This document shows, in pieces, positions 235 through 8,209 of a DNA stretch of 39,955 nt. The stretch covers positions 1 through 39,955 of the forward strand of contig OMJM01000028.1 in the NCBI GenBank assembly GCA_900299345.1, written 5' to 3'. This stretch comes from a bacterium (lineage in GTDB: Bacteria; Fibrobacterota; Fibrobacteria; UBA11236). Each line of letters starts with the position of its first letter. Position 1 is the first letter of the stretch. The translations under genes were made by a program, and so were the position numbers. The notes under the pieces are model-generated. The model saw nothing but the letters and a program-made list of their open reading frames with translations, searched no databases and was not told where the DNA came from.

Positions 235-1731
235 CTAAAAACGATTATCCACACCCAAGTGCAGCAACGCATCACCCGGTGCGCGTTCGGGATTCAAGGC
301 ATAAGTGAAGGAAATTCCCCAATCTCCTTTAGATAATTCCATACCCGCCCCATATCCGATAACTCGATGGAATGAGTATTCACCCGAAAGGTGATTCACC
401 AAGCCCGGGTCTGTAAAAGCGAACAGACGTCCACCACGCCCCAACCACAATTGCCACTCTAATTGACCGAGGGCGTAGGCATTAGTCCAGAATTCACGTT
501 CGCGGTATCCGCGCAATGAATTGGCCCCGCCCACATAGAAGATTTCACCACGGTTGATGCGGTTCAAAGGAAGATTGCTGGCCATATTCAATCCGAATTT
601 CAAACCCTGCCGTGAAATCAGCGGAACCCAACATTCGATTTTTCCGGTTCCTTGCGCCAGATAGTAGAGACTGTCGACGATGTTCCGCCGGATACCCGTC
701 ACTCCCAATTCGGTGTGGTAGCCGGAAGCCGTCAAAGGAACCCGATCTCGTGCATCAATAATCAATCTCAATCCGGAGCGTAATGCCCGGGTGTGAATGC
801 CCAGAATCGCGTCACGATTCTCCTGATCGCCGAACTGCGCTTCTAGACGACTGGTGAAACTCAGGTCTTGAAACAGCGTCAGACCTCGATTCCATTCCCA
901 GAATACGGTGTCTTGCTGAAGAAAATTCAACTCCAGTCGCGTCCCTACCGGCGTACCAAACAACCACGGCTCGGCATAGACCAAATGTGCCTCCCGCTCA
1001 TTTCCGGCTCTGCCGTCAAAGGAGAAATCCAAATCCCGGGCGGTGCCGAAAAGATTGAGCAAATGGAGATCGATATAACCTGTCAGTTTATTGACGCTTG
1101 TCGCCTTCGAATCGTAACCCAACAGGCCGCTCAAATGATTGTCGTGTGCGTCCGGTAACCGTAAGGCCGGGTAGATAAGGTTTCGCGTCGAATCACGAAA
1201 TAGACCCGTCAATTCTGTGGATTCGAAATACCCCCTTCGCCTCAACCGTTGCAATCCAAGATTGACGCGTGATTCATTGTACGTATCGTCGCTCTCCCAT
1301 AAGGCGAGCCTTTGCACTATTTCAGGTTTACTACGCGTCTCCGACACCTTGGGTATTCCCAGTTTGTAGCCGTAACCACGGTGGATGTGGAATTCCACAT
1401 CCACCCAGCCTATTTTCATGGAATCCGCCTGCGCGTCGCTGTGGATTACGGCGAATGGGAATCCCTGATTAAGGAAGTAACGCTTGATCTCGGCCTGCAA
1501 GGCCATGATGTTTTTTCGGTTGGCCGCAATCCCGGTGTATCTCTTCACCGGGATTCCTTCCAATGGATTTTCTTGCTCGTCAAAAATCCGGATGCTATGG
1601 ATCTTGAACAGTGGCCCCCATTGAACTGAATCCACTGCGGCCCAGTATCCTTCATCCACCGCCTTTTCACGCGCGGGCTTCTGAGGATAACCGCACATGG
1701 CGAATGCCAAGACAAGCATGCAGAATTTCAT
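235..1731 (-). CDS. BamA/TamA-like (Omp85 superfamily) outer-membrane protein
   Basis: This is a 498-residue predicted outer-membrane barrel of the Omp85 family. Residues from about 40 to 180 look like one or two POTRA-type modules (the segment PEIVQRLALWESDDTYNESR and a following RLRRRGYF, typical of POTRA helices). The rest is beta-rich. Near the C-terminus GGANSLRGYRER matches the conserved L6 'RGY/RGF' loop motif, and the protein ends in Phe (VDNRF), as barrel proteins recognised by the Bam complex do. It is much shorter than true BamA (about 800 residues), closer to TamA-type or FhaC-like members. The start at 1731 (MKFCMLVLAFAMCG, a signal peptide with a possible lipobox-like Cys) is preferred because its ATG overlaps the upstream gene's stop as TGATG. 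The frame extends to 1773 without a better start. It is the last gene of a three-gene coupled cassette. Confidence 0.85.
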   Translation of the reverse strand: MKFCMLVLAFAMCGYPQKPAREKAVDEGYWAAVDSVQWGPLFKIHSIRIFDEQENPLEGIPVKRYTGIAANRKNIMALQAEIKRYFLNQGFPFAVIHSDAQADSMKIGWVDVEFHIHRGYGYKLGIPKVSETRSKPEIVQRLALWESDDTYNESRVNLGLQRLRRRGYFESTELTGLFRDSTRNLIYPALRLPDAHDNHLSGLLGYDSKATSVNKLTGYIDLHLLNLFGTARDLDFSFDGRAGNEREAHLVYAEPWLFGTPVGTRLELNFLQQDTVFWEWNRGLTLFQDLSFTSRLEAQFGDQENRDAILGIHTRALRSGLRLIIDARDRVPLTASGYHTELGVTGIRRNIVDSLYYLAQGTGKIECWVPLISRQGLKFGLNMASNLPLNRINRGEIFYVGGANSLRGYREREFWTNAYALGQLEWQLWLGRGGRLFAFTDPGLVNHLSGEYSFHRVIGYGAGMELSKGDWGISFTYALNPERAPGDALLHLGVDNRF

Positions 1732-4691
1732 CAGAACACCGCCCTCATCTCCGCGGTCATCTTTTGATCCCACGAAGTGGCATGGGGTTCCAGCCGCGCC
1801 AGATAACTGAAATTCAAATGCAAATGACTTTGAAGTTCGGATTGTGCCAATGCCTCGATACGATGTGTGATCCCCTTGCGATACCCGTCTGTCGTGAAGT
1901 ATCCCCCCTCGCCCTGACCGAAGAGATAGTGCCAGGCATATTCAACCGAGGCACGGCCACCAAAAAAGGAACCCTTTTCAATCCTCGCTTTGGTAGTCAC
2001 TTCCTGCAAGTCGAATGGAAAACCGACATTCTCACCCTGTGCGGATCCATATTGCATTGAGGGAACCAAGGTAAAGGAATGCGGAAGATGACGGTACAAT
2101 TCCAACCGGGTCTGTCTGGCATCCACACGGCTTTCTGAAATGGAGGAAGTGGAAAGTCCGCGCCGGCTTTTCGATTGCACCATTCCGGACCACGCAGCCT
2201 CCCATTCCTCCGACCAAGACCAGCGATATTCCGCGTCCGTTCGCCAATCAAACTCTCGGAATGCGTACAGGCCTGCACCCCTCAGGTAATCGCGTTGATA
2301 GCGCAATGTGGCGGAACTGGTTCCGGAAGGCGCGTGCCACCGCAGAAAGGGTTCGTAATGCGTGCGGCCGGAACGGACTGCGTCGATTTGCGCATCGGTA
2401 AGCCGGGGAAGCGGAACGGGATCCGAAGAACTATCCTGATAATCCGTGGCCAGGTCGAGACTCAGATCGACGTCTGCCAGCACACCACCGATCCCCACGG
2501 GCCATTTCCCCGGCGATAAATCCAGATGTATGTTCCACTGCAGTTCCTGATAAGGACGGCGGCCAAGGGTCGTATCGCGCTGCAGGCCCGCAAAGACATA
2601 ATCGCCGCCAAGTTCCACGCGTTGGTATGCATTGAGCAACGAGTCGAAGACGTAGTCACCTTTCCCCGAATCCACTTTTTGATAGGCATTGACAAGAGGA
2701 GCTTCGGCCGTGCGTGAAACCTGATAATGCGTTTGCAAGCCATATCCCTTGGGATACCCCGACGCGGCAAAATCAAGCTCGGCTTGATCATAAATCGTTT
2801 CTTGTGGCTTATGGGAAAGAGTGCCATCTGTTTGCAACAGCCATTCCCGGTGAAAACGCCGCGCCGCATAGGCATCTCCGCTGAACGGTCCCCAATCCAA
2901 AAGTCGCAAACGCTGTGAAACGCCGATATCGAAGAGGGAATCCTGGCGGGCAGATAGTTTGCTTGTGTAATTCGATCGACCATACAGGGAATTCACTTCG
3001 GTATCCCAAATCCAGCGGTTCCATAACGGCGCGCTTTCCAGTGAAACCGTGGGTTGCCAGAGTTCGGACTGAGCCGAGGTAACGGAGGGAGAGACATCCG
3101 TCATCCAGAGATCATGCACTACCTGAAGTTTGGGAATCCATCCGAACAATTTCGTCGCTGCATTCAACTTTTCCCGATAATTATCCCTGCGGTTGGGATC
3201 CGCCGCCAACTTGGCTTCCGTCGAAAGATCCACGTCAGCGTTGGTACGATGCAGTTTTATAAAACCTTCCCCGCGCTGCGATGTAACCCGCAACGTATCT
3301 CCGATTCTGCCATAGGCAAGACCGCCGCCACCTCCAACTTGAAAACCGGAATAAAGTTCCACGGCAAGCCGGAGGCTGTTGGCATCAAAATTTCTCTCAC
3401 CTGTCTTTGCATCGAGGTTCCATTGGTCTCGAAACGTCCGGGTTTCCACGGTCTGATGAAAGGCGGAGAAATTCTTTGAGCGATGTTCATGTGTCGGTTC
3501 GAGTTCCAGACGCAGCAACCCACCTTGATCCAATGGGGAACCGAATCGGTGAATACCGTGATAGCGGGTGGAAAATCCGAGATTGTCTCCGTCGTCACGT
3601 TCGGAGTAAAGGTTTTTGTCCCACAGACTTCCCAAGGCTACGAACCTGCCTTTCCCCTTTTCCCCACCATCCCACTCAGCTGCAAAAACGCCAGCCGCCA
3701 GTTTTTGCGGCAATGAAACCGCACCTGACGAGTCTGTCAGAATGGAATCACCCGCCAGTTCGTAGCGATGAAGCGCGGAATCTCCCGGCGTCCCTGCAGC
3801 AGGATTATCCTTGTCATCCCATTCTTGAATCATTCGCGCACTGAAACGGAAAGCGCCGAGAGTGTCCGAAAGTTCGGTTCCTGCCACGCTTCTTGGAAAG
3901 ACTTGCTCGGTATACTGAAATTCCACCGTGAACAGATTTTCGCCGGTGACCCAGACCGCCTTGAGAAAGTCAACCCTGCCATCCGAATAATCAATGGTGT
4001 AGTCGGCACCGCGTAGCAGCAGGGAGCCATTGCGCCAGACGCGTTCCGTCCCTGCAAGGACGGTGATGAAAGCACTCCCGTCGCGGCCACGGAGATAGTA
4101 GCCGCTTTGTTTCCCGTCCACGCCGTGCAAGGTGTCGGTGTGAAAGACACCCTTGCTCAAGGCATACATTGCCGTGAGCCCGAATCCGGAATGGACATAT
4201 CCAAGCCGCGCCCCATCGGCTTTGATGGCAAAACGATCCTCGCCCTCTCGACCGTAGTTGAGGAAATAATCCCCCAGCAGGTATTCGTATTGTCGGCCGT
4301 AAACCCGCAGGTATTTATTGTCCACCTCGCGCAAACTGGCGGTGTTTCCTTGCGGCTGAACGGGAACATTTTGATCCGAAAGACTGCCTTCTATGAAGAC
4401 ATTCTCCGCGATTTGTCCTTTCACATTCACAAGCAGCGAGGCATCGACCCCAACCCCATTCCCCTGCCCTGTGGTCACGGAAAGCGATTTGCTTCCCGAA
4501 AAATCCACATGGTAGGCTCCCGTATCGATCGTGGTGTCCTTGAAGGTTTGCGATTCAACGTGAACGGAATCGTTGCGGAAGACGGGGACATCAGCAGAAT
4601 CATGCAAGTGGATCTCGGAATGCGCCCACGGAGGCGCGGGAACCGGGCCGGAGATCAAAGAATTGAGTAGCAATAGGCCGGGGTAAATCAC
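1731..4691 (-). CDS. Large predicted outer-membrane beta-barrel protein with a SprA-like DYTIDY motif
   Basis: The product is a 986-residue exported protein of unknown function. It has an N-terminal signal-like segment (MIYPGLLLLNSLISG) and then almost entirely alternating polar/aromatic beta-strand sequence, ending in Phe (EMRAVF). Around residues 205-265 the segment GTERVWRNGSLLLRG, DYTIDYSDGRVDF and then FTVEFQY resembles a motif I associate with SprA and with large uncharacterised outer-membrane proteins of Gemmatimonadota and other FCB phyla. That comparison is from memory. A second repeated element, VNAYQKVDSGKGDYVFDSLLNAYQRVELGGDYVF, is visible near residues 670-700. The start is GTG at 4691, whose GTGA overlaps the TGA of the lipoprotein gene upstream. 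The stop overlaps the ATG of the Omp85 gene. Coupling of all three argues for one envelope complex. Confidence 0.8.
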   Translation of the reverse strand: MIYPGLLLLNSLISGPVPAPPWAHSEIHLHDSADVPVFRNDSVHVESQTFKDTTIDTGAYHVDFSGSKSLSVTTGQGNGVGVDASLLVNVKGQIAENVFIEGSLSDQNVPVQPQGNTASLREVDNKYLRVYGRQYEYLLGDYFLNYGREGEDRFAIKADGARLGYVHSGFGLTAMYALSKGVFHTDTLHGVDGKQSGYYLRGRDGSAFITVLAGTERVWRNGSLLLRGADYTIDYSDGRVDFLKAVWVTGENLFTVEFQYTEQVFPRSVAGTELSDTLGAFRFSARMIQEWDDKDNPAAGTPGDSALHRYELAGDSILTDSSGAVSLPQKLAAGVFAAEWDGGEKGKGRFVALGSLWDKNLYSERDDGDNLGFSTRYHGIHRFGSPLDQGGLLRLELEPTHEHRSKNFSAFHQTVETRTFRDQWNLDAKTGERNFDANSLRLAVELYSGFQVGGGGGLAYGRIGDTLRVTSQRGEGFIKLHRTNADVDLSTEAKLAADPNRRDNYREKLNAATKLFGWIPKLQVVHDLWMTDVSPSVTSAQSELWQPTVSLESAPLWNRWIWDTEVNSLYGRSNYTSKLSARQDSLFDIGVSQRLRLLDWGPFSGDAYAARRFHREWLLQTDGTLSHKPQETIYDQAELDFAASGYPKGYGLQTHYQVSRTAEAPLVNAYQKVDSGKGDYVFDSLLNAYQRVELGGDYVFAGLQRDTTLGRRPYQELQWNIHLDLSPGKWPVGIGGVLADVDLSLDLATDYQDSSSDPVPLPRLTDAQIDAVRSGRTHYEPFLRWHAPSGTSSATLRYQRDYLRGAGLYAFREFDWRTDAEYRWSWSEEWEAAWSGMVQSKSRRGLSTSSISESRVDARQTRLELYRHLPHSFTLVPSMQYGSAQGENVGFPFDLQEVTTKARIEKGSFFGGRASVEYAWHYLFGQGEGGYFTTDGYRKGITHRIEALAQSELQSHLHLNFSYLARLEPHATSWDQKMTAEMRAVF

Positions 4692-5407
4692 TGAAATCGG
4701 ATTGGCTGAAGCCGACGTTGGACTGAAAGGAAACGGAATCCAAAGCCATCCTTGTCCGCCACCTCAAGAGTCCATTCCCGTGCACTTTCATCCCAGACCG
4801 TTCGACCTCCAGAATGATTGTTGTTGTGGTCTGAACTCTTGTTCAACGAGGCATCGAAACGCGCCGGGCCATCGGGTAACACACAGGCAATGGAACCACT
4901 ATCTGGTTCCTGAATGCAATCCCGTATCCCCATGGGAAGACGGATGCGATTGCGCAAGATCCAATCCGCAGTCCCTTCGCTTCCCTGCCGATCCGCGAAT
5001 TGCCATGCTTCACCCGAGGCATAATCCAGGAAGGTGAAAGCCCCATCCGCACCGCGGAAAGCAACCATGCGTCCAGGGGCCCATGGAAGCAGTATTGACG
5101 GGAGAGGAAAGGTGGAAATCAATTGCGCGCCGGTATCGTACAAGCACAGGCGACCTTGCGCAGCGTCCAGCAAATAGAAATGTCCCTGAATTCCTTCCAA
5201 CGCCGCCACAGGCCGAAAGGCGCCACCGGGTGAAGCGATCTCCTTCCATGATTCAAAATTCGGAAAACGGGAATAGCGCGCGCCGCCAAAACGAAACGCA
5301 TACCACATGTCACGGGAATGGACAACCGCATCCGCTTCAATGCCTGGATTTCGGTTGGAGCTTGCCGAATGAGTGGCACAACCGACAACCGAGATCATGA
5401 ACGTCAT
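4688..5407 (-). CDS. Predicted lipoprotein, beta-propeller-like, first gene of the envelope cassette
   Basis: This is a protein of about 239 residues with an N-terminal lipobox-like SVVGC followed by a Ser/Asn-rich linker, so it is probably a lipoprotein. The body contains short repeats of the type GHFYLLDAAQGRLCLYDTGA and GAFTFLDYASGEAWQF, reminiscent of propeller blades in which a strand reads out a 'value' and then a 'label'. I do not recognise the family. The start is uncertain. ATGs at 5407 and 5398 give a very short signal (10 or 7 residues before Cys), while a hydrophobic run continues in frame upstream with no ATG, GTG or TTG nearby. A CTG start at 5434 would give a normal-length signal peptide. 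No clear Shine-Dalgarno is seen at either ATG. The gene ends in a GTGA overlap with the 986-residue barrel gene and faces the sigma factor gene across a repeat-rich region. Confidence 0.7.
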   Translation of the reverse strand: MTFMISVVGCATHSASSNRNPGIEADAVVHSRDMWYAFRFGGARYSRFPNFESWKEIASPGGAFRPVAALEGIQGHFYLLDAAQGRLCLYDTGAQLISTFPLPSILLPWAPGRMVAFRGADGAFTFLDYASGEAWQFADRQGSEGTADWILRNRIRLPMGIRDCIQEPDSGSIACVLPDGPARFDASLNKSSDHNNNHSGGRTVWDESAREWTLEVADKDGFGFRFLSVQRRLQPIRFQ

Positions 5408-5416
5408 GAATAAGAG

Positions 5417-5475
5417 TGTGCAAGTTGTGCACAGTAAAAAACCACACTGCGCAGACTGCGCAAAACCTTGCGCAG
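5417..5475. promoter_or_regulatory. Cluster of TGYGCA hexamers with an 8-bp perfect inverted repeat
   Basis: Five hexamers lie in the intergenic region: TGTGCA at 5417 and 5426 (9 bp apart), and TGCGCA at 5448, 5457 and 5469 (9 and 12 bp apart). The last two form the perfect dyad CTGCGCAA-AACC-TTGCGCAG at 5456-5475, and the second contains the palindrome TGTGCACA. The cluster ends about 60 bp upstream of the sigma-54 site and starts 10 bp upstream of the divergent lipoprotein gene. That suits an activator (enhancer-binding protein) site for the rightward gene and an operator for the leftward cassette. The binding protein is unknown. Confidence 0.6.
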
Positions 5476-5534
5476 GGAAAGGATGTTTGGGATACAAATC
5501 TTTGTGTTTATGGCCAAAAAGGGCAATTCGCAGA

Positions 5535-5552
5535 CTGGCACGCCCGTTGCAA
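5535..5552 (+). promoter_or_regulatory. Sigma-54 (RpoN) -24/-12 promoter
   Basis: The sequence CTGGCACGCCCGTTGCA matches the sigma-54 consensus YTGGCACG-N4-TTGCW at every defined position, with GG (5537-5538) and GC (5549-5550) at the required spacing. It lies just upstream of the ECF sigma factor gene. The expected transcription start, about 12 nt past the GC, falls near 5562, so the mRNA would have only about 3 nt before the ATG at 5565. That would make it nearly leaderless, which fits the lack of a Shine-Dalgarno. Confidence 0.75.
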
Positions 5553-5564
5553 AATACCCTCCGC

Positions 5565-6116
5565 ATGAACACAACAATTCTCACAGCCCAAACCCTTTGT
5601 CCCGATGCCACCCAGTTGTATGCACGCTACCGCGATTTCGTGGTCCGCGTCTGCATTCGATATGTACAAAACCACGACGAAGCGGAAGATCTCGCCCAAG
5701 AAGTGTTTCTCAAGGCTGGAAATGCCATGGATTCCTTCGCGGGCCAGAGTCAGCCCAGCACGTGGTTGTATCGCATCGCTGTGAACCACTGTCTCGATAC
5801 CCTTCGCCAAAAGAAGCGCCAACGCGATCAACTGGCGACCTACGCCATCATTATGGAAGACGATTGTGAAGAAGAAGGCGAAGAAACACCTTCCGCCATG
5901 AGACAGGTATTGGACAGGTTGCGCTCCGAGATGGATCCCATCAATGGACAAATCGTGTATCTACGCTTCGAGATGGGAATGACACACGATGCCATTGCGG
6001 AAGTCCGCGGAGTTTCACGTGTGGCCATCACCAAGCGGCTCGCAAAAATCGAACTTCGCGCCAAGGCAATCTACGCAGAGCTGGCAAATGCTGAATCCGA
6101 AAGGATGTCAGCTTGA
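5565..6116 (+). CDS. ECF-type RNA polymerase sigma factor
   Basis: This 183-residue sigma-70-family factor of ECF architecture directs RNA polymerase to a specific promoter set. Region 2 spans about residues 18-85 (LYARYRDFVVRVCIRYVQ, then DEAEDLAQEVFLKA, the conserved region 2.2 motif, then TWLYRIAVNHCLDTLR of region 2.4). A strongly acidic linker (EDDCEEEGEE) follows, and region 4 covers about 125-178 with a helix-turn-helix (MTHDAIAEVRGVSRVAITKRL). The ATG at 5565 is chosen because it sits at the start of the family fold. The frame is open further upstream, but only through intergenic repeats. No anti-sigma factor gene with a transmembrane segment is adjacent, unlike most ECF genes. The divergent neighbour is the envelope cassette, a plausible target. 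Confidence 0.9.
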   Translation: MNTTILTAQTLCPDATQLYARYRDFVVRVCIRYVQNHDEAEDLAQEVFLKAGNAMDSFAGQSQPSTWLYRIAVNHCLDTLRQKKRQRDQLATYAIIMEDDCEEEGEETPSAMRQVLDRLRSEMDPINGQIVYLRFEMGMTHDAIAEVRGVSRVAITKRLAKIELRAKAIYAELANAESERMSA

Positions 6117-6226
6117 TCTTCCGGGGAACCGGACCCGGCTCGGACTCTGCTAGTGCAGCGATTCGAGAAACCGCATGCCGCCGTTCGGTTCCCCACCACG
6201 GGAATTTTCCAATTTTCAATGACCTA

Positions 6227-6934
6227 ATGAACCGCATCTTACTTCTTGCCTTGATCGCAGTTTGTTATTCGATTCCAGTCTGCGCCAAAGATACCGTTAT
6301 TTTATTGCATGGTCTTTTAAGGGACAGCCGCTCGATGGAGAAGATGAGTGCATCTCTCGTCGATGCTGGCTACGAAGTGACCAACGTGGATTACCCTTCC
6401 CATTCCGCGTCGGTGGAGGAATTATCGGAAACCATCCTTGGAGCAACTCTCGCGCGCCTCGACAACAAAGACTCGGCGGCGAAGATTCATTTCGTAACCC
6501 ATTCGTTGGGAGGCATCCTCGTACGACAGTACCTGAGCAGGCATCAAGTCCCACAACTTGGACGAGTCGTCATGCTCGCGCCTCCCAATCAAGGAAGCGA
6601 AGTGGTGGACAAGCTGGGGGATCTTAAAGCTTTCGAATGGATCAACGGACCTTCCGGAAAAGAGCTCGGAACATCTCCGGAATCGGTTCCCAACAAACTG
6701 GGACCGGTTCATTTCGAGTTGGGAGTGATTGCAGGAGATCGCTCCATCAACGGCATCAACAGTCGGATGATCCCGGGCCCGGATGATGGCAAGGTATCCG
6801 TGGAGCGAACCAAAGTACAAGGCATGAAGGAACACATCACCTTGCATGCCACGCATCCTTATATCATGAAAAACAGGGAGGCTATTGGGCAAACTGTGTT
6901 TTTTCTGGGAAACGGGACGTTTCAACACCGTTAA
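6227..6934 (+). CDS. Secreted alpha/beta-hydrolase, lipase/PGAP1-like
   Basis: This is a predicted exported esterase or lipase of 235 residues. A signal peptide ends near residue 20 (MNRILLLALIAVCYSIPVCA). The mature protein begins with the oxyanion strand TVILLHGLLRD, and the nucleophile elbow is THSLGG with Ser in a G/T-H-S-x-G context typical of triacylglycerol lipases and DUF676/PGAP1-like proteins. A late Asp (GPDDGKVSV) and His (THPYIM) can complete the triad. The ATG at 6227 is preferred because it starts the signal peptide; an in-frame TTG at 6113 overlaps the sigma factor stop but adds an implausible N-terminus. It follows the sigma gene by 110 bp and may share its transcript. The substrate is unknown. 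Confidence 0.8.
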   Translation: MNRILLLALIAVCYSIPVCAKDTVILLHGLLRDSRSMEKMSASLVDAGYEVTNVDYPSHSASVEELSETILGATLARLDNKDSAAKIHFVTHSLGGILVRQYLSRHQVPQLGRVVMLAPPNQGSEVVDKLGDLKAFEWINGPSGKELGTSPESVPNKLGPVHFELGVIAGDRSINGINSRMIPGPDDGKVSVERTKVQGMKEHITLHATHPYIMKNREAIGQTVFFLGNGTFQHR

Positions 6935-6985
6935 ACCAGTTCGACGGATTGACGAAGCTTATTCGATTTGGCAGGTTTTTTCCAA

Positions 6986-8209
6986 ATGAGAACGTGTCTG
7001 CTGTTGATCTTTTTATTGCTGCTTCCGCCTGCCTGTCGGGCAACAGTTTCCACATGGATCGGCAACGGGACTTCAGGCTATATCAACGGCAGCCTGTCCA
7101 ACGCAAGGCTGTATGAACCCGTCGGGCTTTTCCGCGACAAAACTGGAACCCTCTACCTCGCTGATTCCAGAAACAACCGAATTCGGAAAATCGATCCGGC
7201 AGGCAACGTTTCTCTATTGGCCGGTTCAGGAACGGCCGGATTTCAGGATGGTGCTCCCACGACGGCCCGTTTTAACGGTTCCTTCAATTTGACTGCCGAT
7301 GATAGCGGAAACGTTTACGTGGCTGATTTCTCCAATCAGCGCATCAGGAAAATATCCCCTGCGGGCAATGTCACCACAATTGCGGGAAGTGGTCAGGAGG
7401 GATATGCCGATGGTCCTGCTCTTTCCGCCAAGTTCGACTACCCGAGAGGCATCGTGCTCGACAAGTCGGGCAATCTTTATATCGGCGATAGCTGGAATCA
7501 CCGTATCCGAAAGATCGATTTGAAGACCAATCAGGTTACCACGTACGCAGGGGGCGGACAAGCCATGGGAGTTCAGGTTGAAGGCGGTTACCTCGACGCC
7601 TCAGACACTGCGGCCCGTTTCAACACGCCCTGTGGTCTCTCCATCGATCCTGACGGCAATATCTATGTCGCCGACGCCAACAATCATCGCATCCGAAAAA
7701 TCGACGCTTTACGTCGCGTGACGACCATTTCCGGAAGCGGCCCTGTAGGCAAGGTTAATGGCGGTTTTATGAATGGGGCTTTTTCTGTCGCACGATTGAA
7801 TACCCCCACCGAGATCTGTTACACAAACCTTGGTTTTCTTCTGATTGGGGATACGTACAACAACAGGGTCAGAAAATTGTTGTCGGACGGTAGTCTCTCC
7901 ACGTTGGCGGGAAATGGTACCGCAGGACGCGTAGACGGAGCGGATTCCATTGCGCAGTTCAACTACCCACGAGGAGTAGCGGTGAATTCCGCCGGCGATT
8001 CCGTATTTGTCGCGGACTTCAACAATCACTCCATCCGTTTGATTCGAACTCAAGTTTCGACGGGCATTACCACCCCCGCAACGCGGAGATACGATTCACC
8101 CTTTGAGATTCGCATCTACTCGGTCAATGGTAAACTGGTTTACGGCAGGCAACCCTCTAGCGAAATGCGAATGTTTCCATTGACCCGACGAATAAGGCCG
8201 GGAAATTAA
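6986..8209 (+). CDS. Secreted NHL-repeat beta-propeller protein
   Basis: A 407-residue exported protein with a strong signal peptide (MRTCLLLIFLLLLPPACRA). It is followed by about six NHL repeats, each reading roughly P-x-G-[IL]-x-x-D-x-x-G-N-[LI]-Y-[VI]-[AG]-D-x-x-N-x-R-I-R-K-I-x, for example GNIYVADANNHRIRKID. These form a six-bladed propeller. Repeats alternate with 'AGSGTAGFQDG'-type turns. The last 35 residues are not propeller: they carry FEIRIYSVNGKLVYG, similar to C-terminal sorting or adhesion tails of FCB secreted proteins, followed by a basic end. The ATG at 6986 begins the signal peptide. The stop overlaps the convergent mutarotase-like gene by 4 bp (TTAA). The function is probably binding rather than catalysis. 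Confidence 0.85.
   Translation: MRTCLLLIFLLLLPPACRATVSTWIGNGTSGYINGSLSNARLYEPVGLFRDKTGTLYLADSRNNRIRKIDPAGNVSLLAGSGTAGFQDGAPTTARFNGSFNLTADDSGNVYVADFSNQRIRKISPAGNVTTIAGSGQEGYADGPALSAKFDYPRGIVLDKSGNLYIGDSWNHRIRKIDLKTNQVTTYAGGGQAMGVQVEGGYLDASDTAARFNTPCGLSIDPDGNIYVADANNHRIRKIDALRRVTTISGSGPVGKVNGGFMNGAFSVARLNTPTEICYTNLGFLLIGDTYNNRVRKLLSDGSLSTLAGNGTAGRVDGADSIAQFNYPRGVAVNSAGDSVFVADFNNHSIRLIRTQVSTGITTPATRRYDSPFEIRIYSVNGKLVYGRQPSSEMRMFPLTRRIRPGN

What the first reader, a model, noticed from the sequence alone, without database searches (positions are those of the whole stretch)
5408..5564. Sigma-54 promoter plus repeat array in front of an ECF sigma factor gene
A complete match to the sigma-54 consensus (CTGGCACG-N4-TTGC, correct GG/GC spacing) sits just upstream of an ECF sigma factor gene. 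Five TGYGCA hexamers and a perfect 8-bp dyad lie 60-145 bp upstream of the expected transcription start, the normal place for enhancer-binding-protein sites. A sigma-54 to ECF relay, shared with a divergent envelope cassette, would be an unusual regulatory design. The predicted start is only about 3 nt before the ATG, so the mRNA may be nearly leaderless.
Basis: partly seen in the sequence, partly recalled or inferred. Interest (0 to 1): 0.75.

Follow-up and report, generated by a model that had tools for sequence, protein, structure and literature searches.

The report
Sigma-54 switch for ECF sigma gene
In an uncultured family of Fibrobacterota bacteria, the gene for one RNA polymerase specificity factor appears to be switched on by another (sigma-54), through a control region whose layout is kept almost to the base across diverged species and whose mRNA seems to begin directly at the start codon.

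Summary
The -24/-12 element TGGCACGCCCGTTGC (5536-5550) lies 14 nt before the ATG of an ECF sigma gene (5565-6116). All ten genomes of this Fibrobacterota family have a GG-N10-GC sigma-54 element at the orthologous place, and the gap to the ATG is exactly 14 nt in all ten, which predicts a 3-nt leader. Seven of the nine relatives also have the TGYGCA array. Its core is the dyad TGCGCAA-N4-TTGCGCA, set 60-61 nt from the -24 element although the spacer is only 33-68% identical. The dyad-plus-sigma-54 composite occurs once in this genome, at this locus in six relatives and once in a sister-family genome, out of 121 class genomes; the reversed-pattern control gives none.

The likely activator is an NtrC-type response regulator with its kinase. 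It is encoded beside the ECF gene in five relatives and unlinked here.

Best reading: kinase, then NtrC-type activator, then sigma-54, then a leaderless ECF mRNA. Sigma-54-to-ECF relays are known (HrpL; E. coli rpoE P2 with QseF), so this is a new variant of a known kind. Sharing of the control region with the divergent envelope operon is not shown. There are no expression data.

The parts
5536..5551 (+). Sigma-54 -24/-12 promoter element TGGCACGCCCGTTGCA (GG 5537-5538, GC 5549-5550)
   Evidence: element at the orthologous place in 10/10 family genomes
5562..5564 (+). Predicted 3-nt leader (+1 at 5562) directly before the ATG
   Evidence: Inferred from the -12 position; TTGC-to-ATG distance is 14 nt in 10/10 genomes
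5456..5475 (.). Perfect dyad CTGCGCAA-AACC-TTGCGCAG, likely core upstream activating site of an NtrC-type activator
   Evidence: dyad end to TGG 60-61 nt in the 8 genomes that have it
5417..5474 (.). TGYGCA array: 5417-5422, 5426-5431, 5448-5453, 5457-5462, 5469-5474
   Evidence: the -88/-79/-67 positions from TGG recur as -87/-78/-66 in relatives
5565..6116 (+). ECF sigma factor gene, 183 aa, no anti-sigma gene beside it
   Evidence: PF04542 71.7 bits; TIGR02937 87.8 bits, cut-off 42.9; orthologs
4688..5407 (-). Divergent lipoprotein gene (lipobox VVGC), first gene of the envelope operon
   Evidence: syntenic in relatives
1731..4691 (-). 986-aa outer-membrane beta-barrel protein, phylum-wide family without Pfam model
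235..1773 (-). Omp85/BamA-like protein
   Evidence: PF01103, TIGR03303

Best explanation
This is a sigma-54-dependent promoter with a nearby enhancer that controls an ECF sigma factor gene by transcription. A membrane histidine kinase phosphorylates an NtrC-type response regulator (own genome: contig C14, 4695-6032 kinase, 6029-7363 regulator). The regulator binds the TGYGCA array, mainly the dyad at 5456-5475. It contacts RNAP-sigma-54 held at 5536-5551 across a short, helically fixed spacer and drives open-complex formation. Transcription starts about 3 nt before the ATG, so the ECF mRNA is essentially leaderless. The ECF factor, with no adjacent anti-sigma gene, then turns on its own regulon, which is unknown. 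Shown by sequence: promoter and dyad conservation, fixed spacing, presence of rpoN and of an intact regulator, linkage of regulator and ECF genes in relatives. Inferred: which activator binds, start site, leaderless translation, absence of anti-sigma control, and the regulon.
For: GG-N10-GC sigma-54 element at the orthologous place in 10/10 family genomes, ECF identity down to 38-52%. Exactly 14 nt from TTGC to ATG in all ten, with no Shine-Dalgarno; several relatives have an in-frame stop just upstream, so the ATG is the start. Dyad-to-promoter gap 60-61 nt in the 8 genomes with the dyad, with spacers only 33-68% identical. Composite found in 8 of 121 class genomes, 7 of them at this locus, control 0. 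rpoN in all 13 genomes tested. NtrC-type regulator with receiver, AAA+ and Fis-type HTH, GAFTGA intact, next to the ECF gene in G004, G005, G006, G007 and G009 in the order SMC-kinase-regulator/ECF. The sister-family genome G010 also has the regulator (59%) and a dyad 57 nt from a sigma-54 element before another gene. flgB genes of the same family use the same TGGCAC-N5-TTGCT element, a positive control for the consensus.
Against: No expression or binding data. In this genome the regulator is not linked to the ECF gene, and four other sigma-54 activators exist, so the assignment is by analogy with relatives. G001 keeps the regulator (with GAYTGA) but has no dyad before its ECF gene. G003 keeps the sigma-54 element but has neither dyad nor regulator ortholog (87% complete). 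An additional sigma-70 promoter cannot be excluded, although the consensus scan found none.
Confidence: 0.78

Rival explanations
1. Sigma-54 promoter is real, but a different activator of the genome, not the C14 regulator, binds the array.
For: Five sigma-54 activators in the genome; the regulator is unlinked to the ECF gene here, and G001 has the regulator without a dyad.
Against: Adjacency in five relatives, nearly identical recognition helices, and dyad plus regulator together also in the sister family.
Confidence: 0.15
2. The array is the operator of a repressor or activator of the divergent lipoprotein operon, and the sigma-54 promoter works independently of it.
For: The array lies just upstream of the lipoprotein start in several genomes and overlaps the place where its promoter should be.
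Against: The dyad-to-sigma-54 distance is fixed at 60-61 nt, whereas the dyad-to-lipoprotein distance varies widely. In G001 and G003 the operon persists without a dyad.
Confidence: 0.1
3. Array and dyad are RNA elements (terminator or attenuator hairpins) in a transcript toward the lipoprotein.
For: Two minus-strand terminator-like stems lie in the array here; a perfect dyad in G010 at C32:2962 is followed by a T-run.
Against: No T-run follows the array in the relatives shown, and the spacing is fixed to the sigma-54 element, not to the lipoprotein gene.
Confidence: 0.04
4. Chance match: neither the -24/-12 element nor the array has a function.
For: The exact sigma-54 pattern alone is at chance level genome-wide.
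Against: Conserved position, spacing and leader length in 10/10 genomes amid diverged sequence.
Confidence: 0.01

Closest known systems
E. [quoted passage not shown]
   Same: Kinase plus NtrC-type response regulator activates a sigma-54 promoter of an ECF sigma gene through upstream sites; a lipoprotein is also involved there.
   Different: rpoE also has other promoters and a strong anti-sigma system. Here the ECF gene has one detectable promoter, no adjacent anti-sigma gene and a 3-nt leader. A signalling role for the divergent lipoprotein is not shown.
HrpL of Pseudomonas syringae (HrpRS / sigma-54 / HrpL; PMC5263251)
   Same: Sigma-54 promoter with an upstream activating sequence drives an ECF factor gene in a divergent intergenic region.
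   Different: HrpR and HrpS form a heterohexamer, IHF bends the DNA, and HrpL drives the divergent hrpJ operon from a hrp-box. Here the candidate activator has a receiver domain and no ECF-type motif was found toward the divergent operon.
Sigma-54 flagellar promoters of the same family (flgB)
   Same: Same -24/-12 consensus TGGCAC-N5-TTGCT.
   Different: flgB has 29-32 nt between -12 and ATG with a Shine-Dalgarno sequence; the ECF gene has 14 nt and none.

Membership tests
Sigma-54-dependent promoter | -24 GG and -12 GC with 10 nt between, near consensus | tested here: met
   conserved in 10/10 genomes
Sigma-54-dependent promoter | rpoN encoded in the genome | tested here: met
   PF04552 212 bits, own and all relatives tested
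Sigma-54-dependent promoter | Activator-binding sites upstream of the promoter | tested here: met
   By sequence and conserved spacing only; binding not tested
Sigma-54-dependent promoter | Transcription lost without RpoN | not testable with these tools
   Needs a mutant or in vitro transcription
ECF sigma factor | Sigma-70 regions 2 and 4 | tested here: met
   PF04542 71.7 bits (cut-off 24); TIGR02937 87.8 bits (cut-off 42.9); region 4 models just below their own cut-offs
ECF sigma factor with cognate anti-sigma | Anti-sigma gene beside the ECF gene | tested here: not met
   No such neighbour recognised in the window or relatives; an unlinked anti-sigma is not excluded
NtrC-family activator (candidate, G000:C14) | Receiver, AAA+ domain with GAFTGA, Fis-type HTH | tested here: met
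   PF00072, PF00158, PF02954; GAFTGA
HrpRS-HrpL relay | Activators without receiver domain, acting as a heterohexamer | tested here: not met
   The candidate activator carries a receiver domain and follows a kinase gene
QseEF-type relay | Two-component NtrC-type regulator activates a sigma-54 promoter of an ECF gene | tested here: inconclusive
   All parts present and linked in relatives; activation not tested
Leaderless mRNA | Transcript starts at or within a few nt of the start codon | tested here: inconclusive
   Predicted 3 nt in 10/10 genomes; start site not mapped

The most novel reading that the evidence does not exclude
Sigma-54 promoters in Fibrobacterota are used as built-in leaderless promoters: the position of the ATG is fixed by the sigma-54 start site. 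In this family a dedicated two-component activator with a single detectable target promoter feeds one ECF factor controlled only by transcription, making a two-sigma relay with no anti-sigma and no leader.
Probability: 0.4. Interest if true: 0.62.

Novelty: new variant of a known kind. Interest (0 to 1): 0.52.

Why it matters
Few sigma-54 to ECF relays are documented, and the two compared here are in proteobacteria. This would be one in Fibrobacterota, a phylum for which the literature search found no sigma-54 study, with a named activator, enhancer and spacing that can be tested directly. The invariant 14 nt between -12 and ATG is a sharp prediction of leaderless translation from a sigma-54 promoter. 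The divergent operon belongs to a phylum-wide outer-membrane module with no known function, so the relay gives one handle on it.

Tried and rejected
ECF-type promoter toward the lipoprotein operon: a search for a conserved 4-mer / 15-19 nt / 4-mer pair gave support in at most 3 of 10 genomes, the same as shuffled sequence. Sigma-70 promoter scan of 5380-6250: none. First sigma-54 scan used the wrong spacing and was redone; loci from minus-strand matches had to be reversed. GTDB contig scan gave only one close relative, a Fibrobacteres MAG. The G010 dyad at C32:2962, on the same contig as the regulator, was set aside because it is followed by a T-run and looks like a terminator. Other perfect dyads in G008 (C133) and G006 (C84) have no sigma-54 element in the fetched regions. 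Fold search with the barrel protein gave only generic outer-membrane barrels at low TM (mean pLDDT 54), so no finer family is claimed. Whether sigma-54 elements truly favour 14 nt to ATG across the genome was only sampled.

Full report
Setting. The window is a whole contig (C28) of a 2.24-Mb draft genome. A near relative with 69% ECF identity is a public MAG named 'Fibrobacteres bacterium', so the genome belongs to Fibrobacterota. Ten genomes of its family (own plus G001-G009) and one of its order (G010) were compared.

The observation. The sigma-54 element CTGGCACG-CCCG-TTGC is at 5535-5550 with the correct GG-N10-GC spacing. With the -12 C at 5550 the start is predicted at 5562, 3 nt before the ATG at 5565. 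Five TGYGCA hexamers fall in 5417-5474 and a perfect 8-bp dyad in 5456-5475. The array is 88-145 nt upstream of the predicted start. The exact sigma-54 pattern by itself is no rarer than its reversed control in the whole genome, so conservation had to decide.

Conservation. The ECF gene has orthologs in all nine family genomes (38-69% identity), each divergent from the same lipoprotein / barrel / Omp85 operon. All ten have the -24/-12 element before the ECF gene: nine TGGCAY and one CGGCAC, one of the former with TTCGC instead of TTGC at -12. The distance from -12 to ATG is 14 nt in every case. Seven relatives (G002, G004-G009) have the TGCGCA array, and in all eight genomes with it the dyad ends 60 or 61 nt before the -24 element, while the spacer is only 33-68% identical between genomes. 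Further half-sites also recur, at -87/-88 and, in the second genus, mostly at -101. A search of 121 genomes of the class for dyad plus 50-78 nt plus sigma-54 element found eight sites: seven at this locus and one in G010, with no hit for the reversed control. A functional promoter with an enhancer at fixed distance is the reading that fits.

Activator. rpoN is present throughout. The own genome has five full sigma-54 activators. In G009 one of them, an NtrC-type response regulator, is the convergent neighbour of the ECF gene. A whole-genome search gave its best relatives directly beside the ECF gene in G004, G005, G006, G007 and G009, always after SMC and a membrane histidine kinase gene. The own ortholog, 444 aa, sits on contig C14 behind the same SMC and kinase genes. 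It has receiver, AAA+ and Fis-type HTH domains and an intact GAFTGA. The recognition helices are nearly identical across genomes. In G010, of another family, the regulator ortholog exists and a dyad lies 57 nt from a sigma-54 element before an acyl-CoA synthetase-like gene, which suggests that the dyad follows the regulator and not the ECF gene. Exceptions: G001 has the regulator but no dyad at its ECF gene, and G003 has neither regulator nor dyad but keeps the sigma-54 element.

Leaderless mRNA. The 14-nt constant, the lack of a Shine-Dalgarno sequence and in-frame stops just upstream in relatives make translation from a 3-nt leader the simplest reading. It is not a general property of sigma-54 genes here: flgB has 29-32 nt and a Shine-Dalgarno sequence with the same promoter consensus. 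Yet among sampled sigma-54-like sites followed by ATG in five genomes, distances of 13-14 nt are over-represented (18 of 64; 9 of 61 non-ECF sites at exactly 14, binomial p about 1e-4). Some lead into short frames and are chance; others start real genes (L090, L121, L133, L162). These mRNA starts are predictions.

Divergent operon. The lipoprotein, barrel protein and Omp85 form a conserved operon. The barrel protein is found in 60 of 61 class genomes. In the Fibrobacter-like genomes examined it sits with Omp85 and, in two of the three, close behind Ras-like GTPase and roadblock genes, without an ECF gene or sigma-54 element. The relay was therefore probably added next to this module in one family. 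I found no conserved promoter facing the lipoprotein. Co-control remains possible, as at hrpL-hrpJ (PMC5263251), but is not shown.

Known systems. Sigma-54 to ECF relays exist: HrpRS-HrpL (PMC5263251) and QseF at rpoE P2 (PMC6075780, PMC8103513). The second is the closer analogue because it uses a kinase and an NtrC-type response regulator. What differs is the phylum, the apparent dedication of the activator to one site, the lack of an adjacent anti-sigma gene and the invariant leaderless start. I file it as a new variant of a known kind.

Noticed in passing
Loci L090, L121, L133, L162 and others: Sigma-54-like sites in Fibrobacterota are followed by ATG at 13-14 nt more often than at other distances, hinting at further leaderless sigma-54 genes.
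   Followed up: partly
window 1731-4691 (-); L194, L195, L196: The 986-aa barrel protein has no Pfam model, is found in 60/61 class genomes, and in two of the three Fibrobacter-like genomes read sits close to a Ras/MglA-like GTPase and a roadblock protein.
   Followed up: partly
L197 (G010:C306:54077-54166): Same dyad plus sigma-54 composite in a sister-family genome, 57 nt apart, before an acyl-CoA synthetase-like gene.
   Followed up: partly
flgB loci L135, L140, L156, L164, L173, L174, L175: Flagellar flgB genes of the second genus carry the same sigma-54 consensus with 29-32 nt to the ATG and a Shine-Dalgarno sequence.
   Followed up: yes
L149:2962-2979: A perfect TGCGCAA-N4-TTGCGCA dyad followed by a T-run looks like an intrinsic terminator; dyad counts alone can mislead.
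   Followed up: yes
window 6986-8209 (+): NHL-repeat beta-propeller protein two genes after the ECF gene; not conserved beside the ECF gene in relatives.
   Followed up: no
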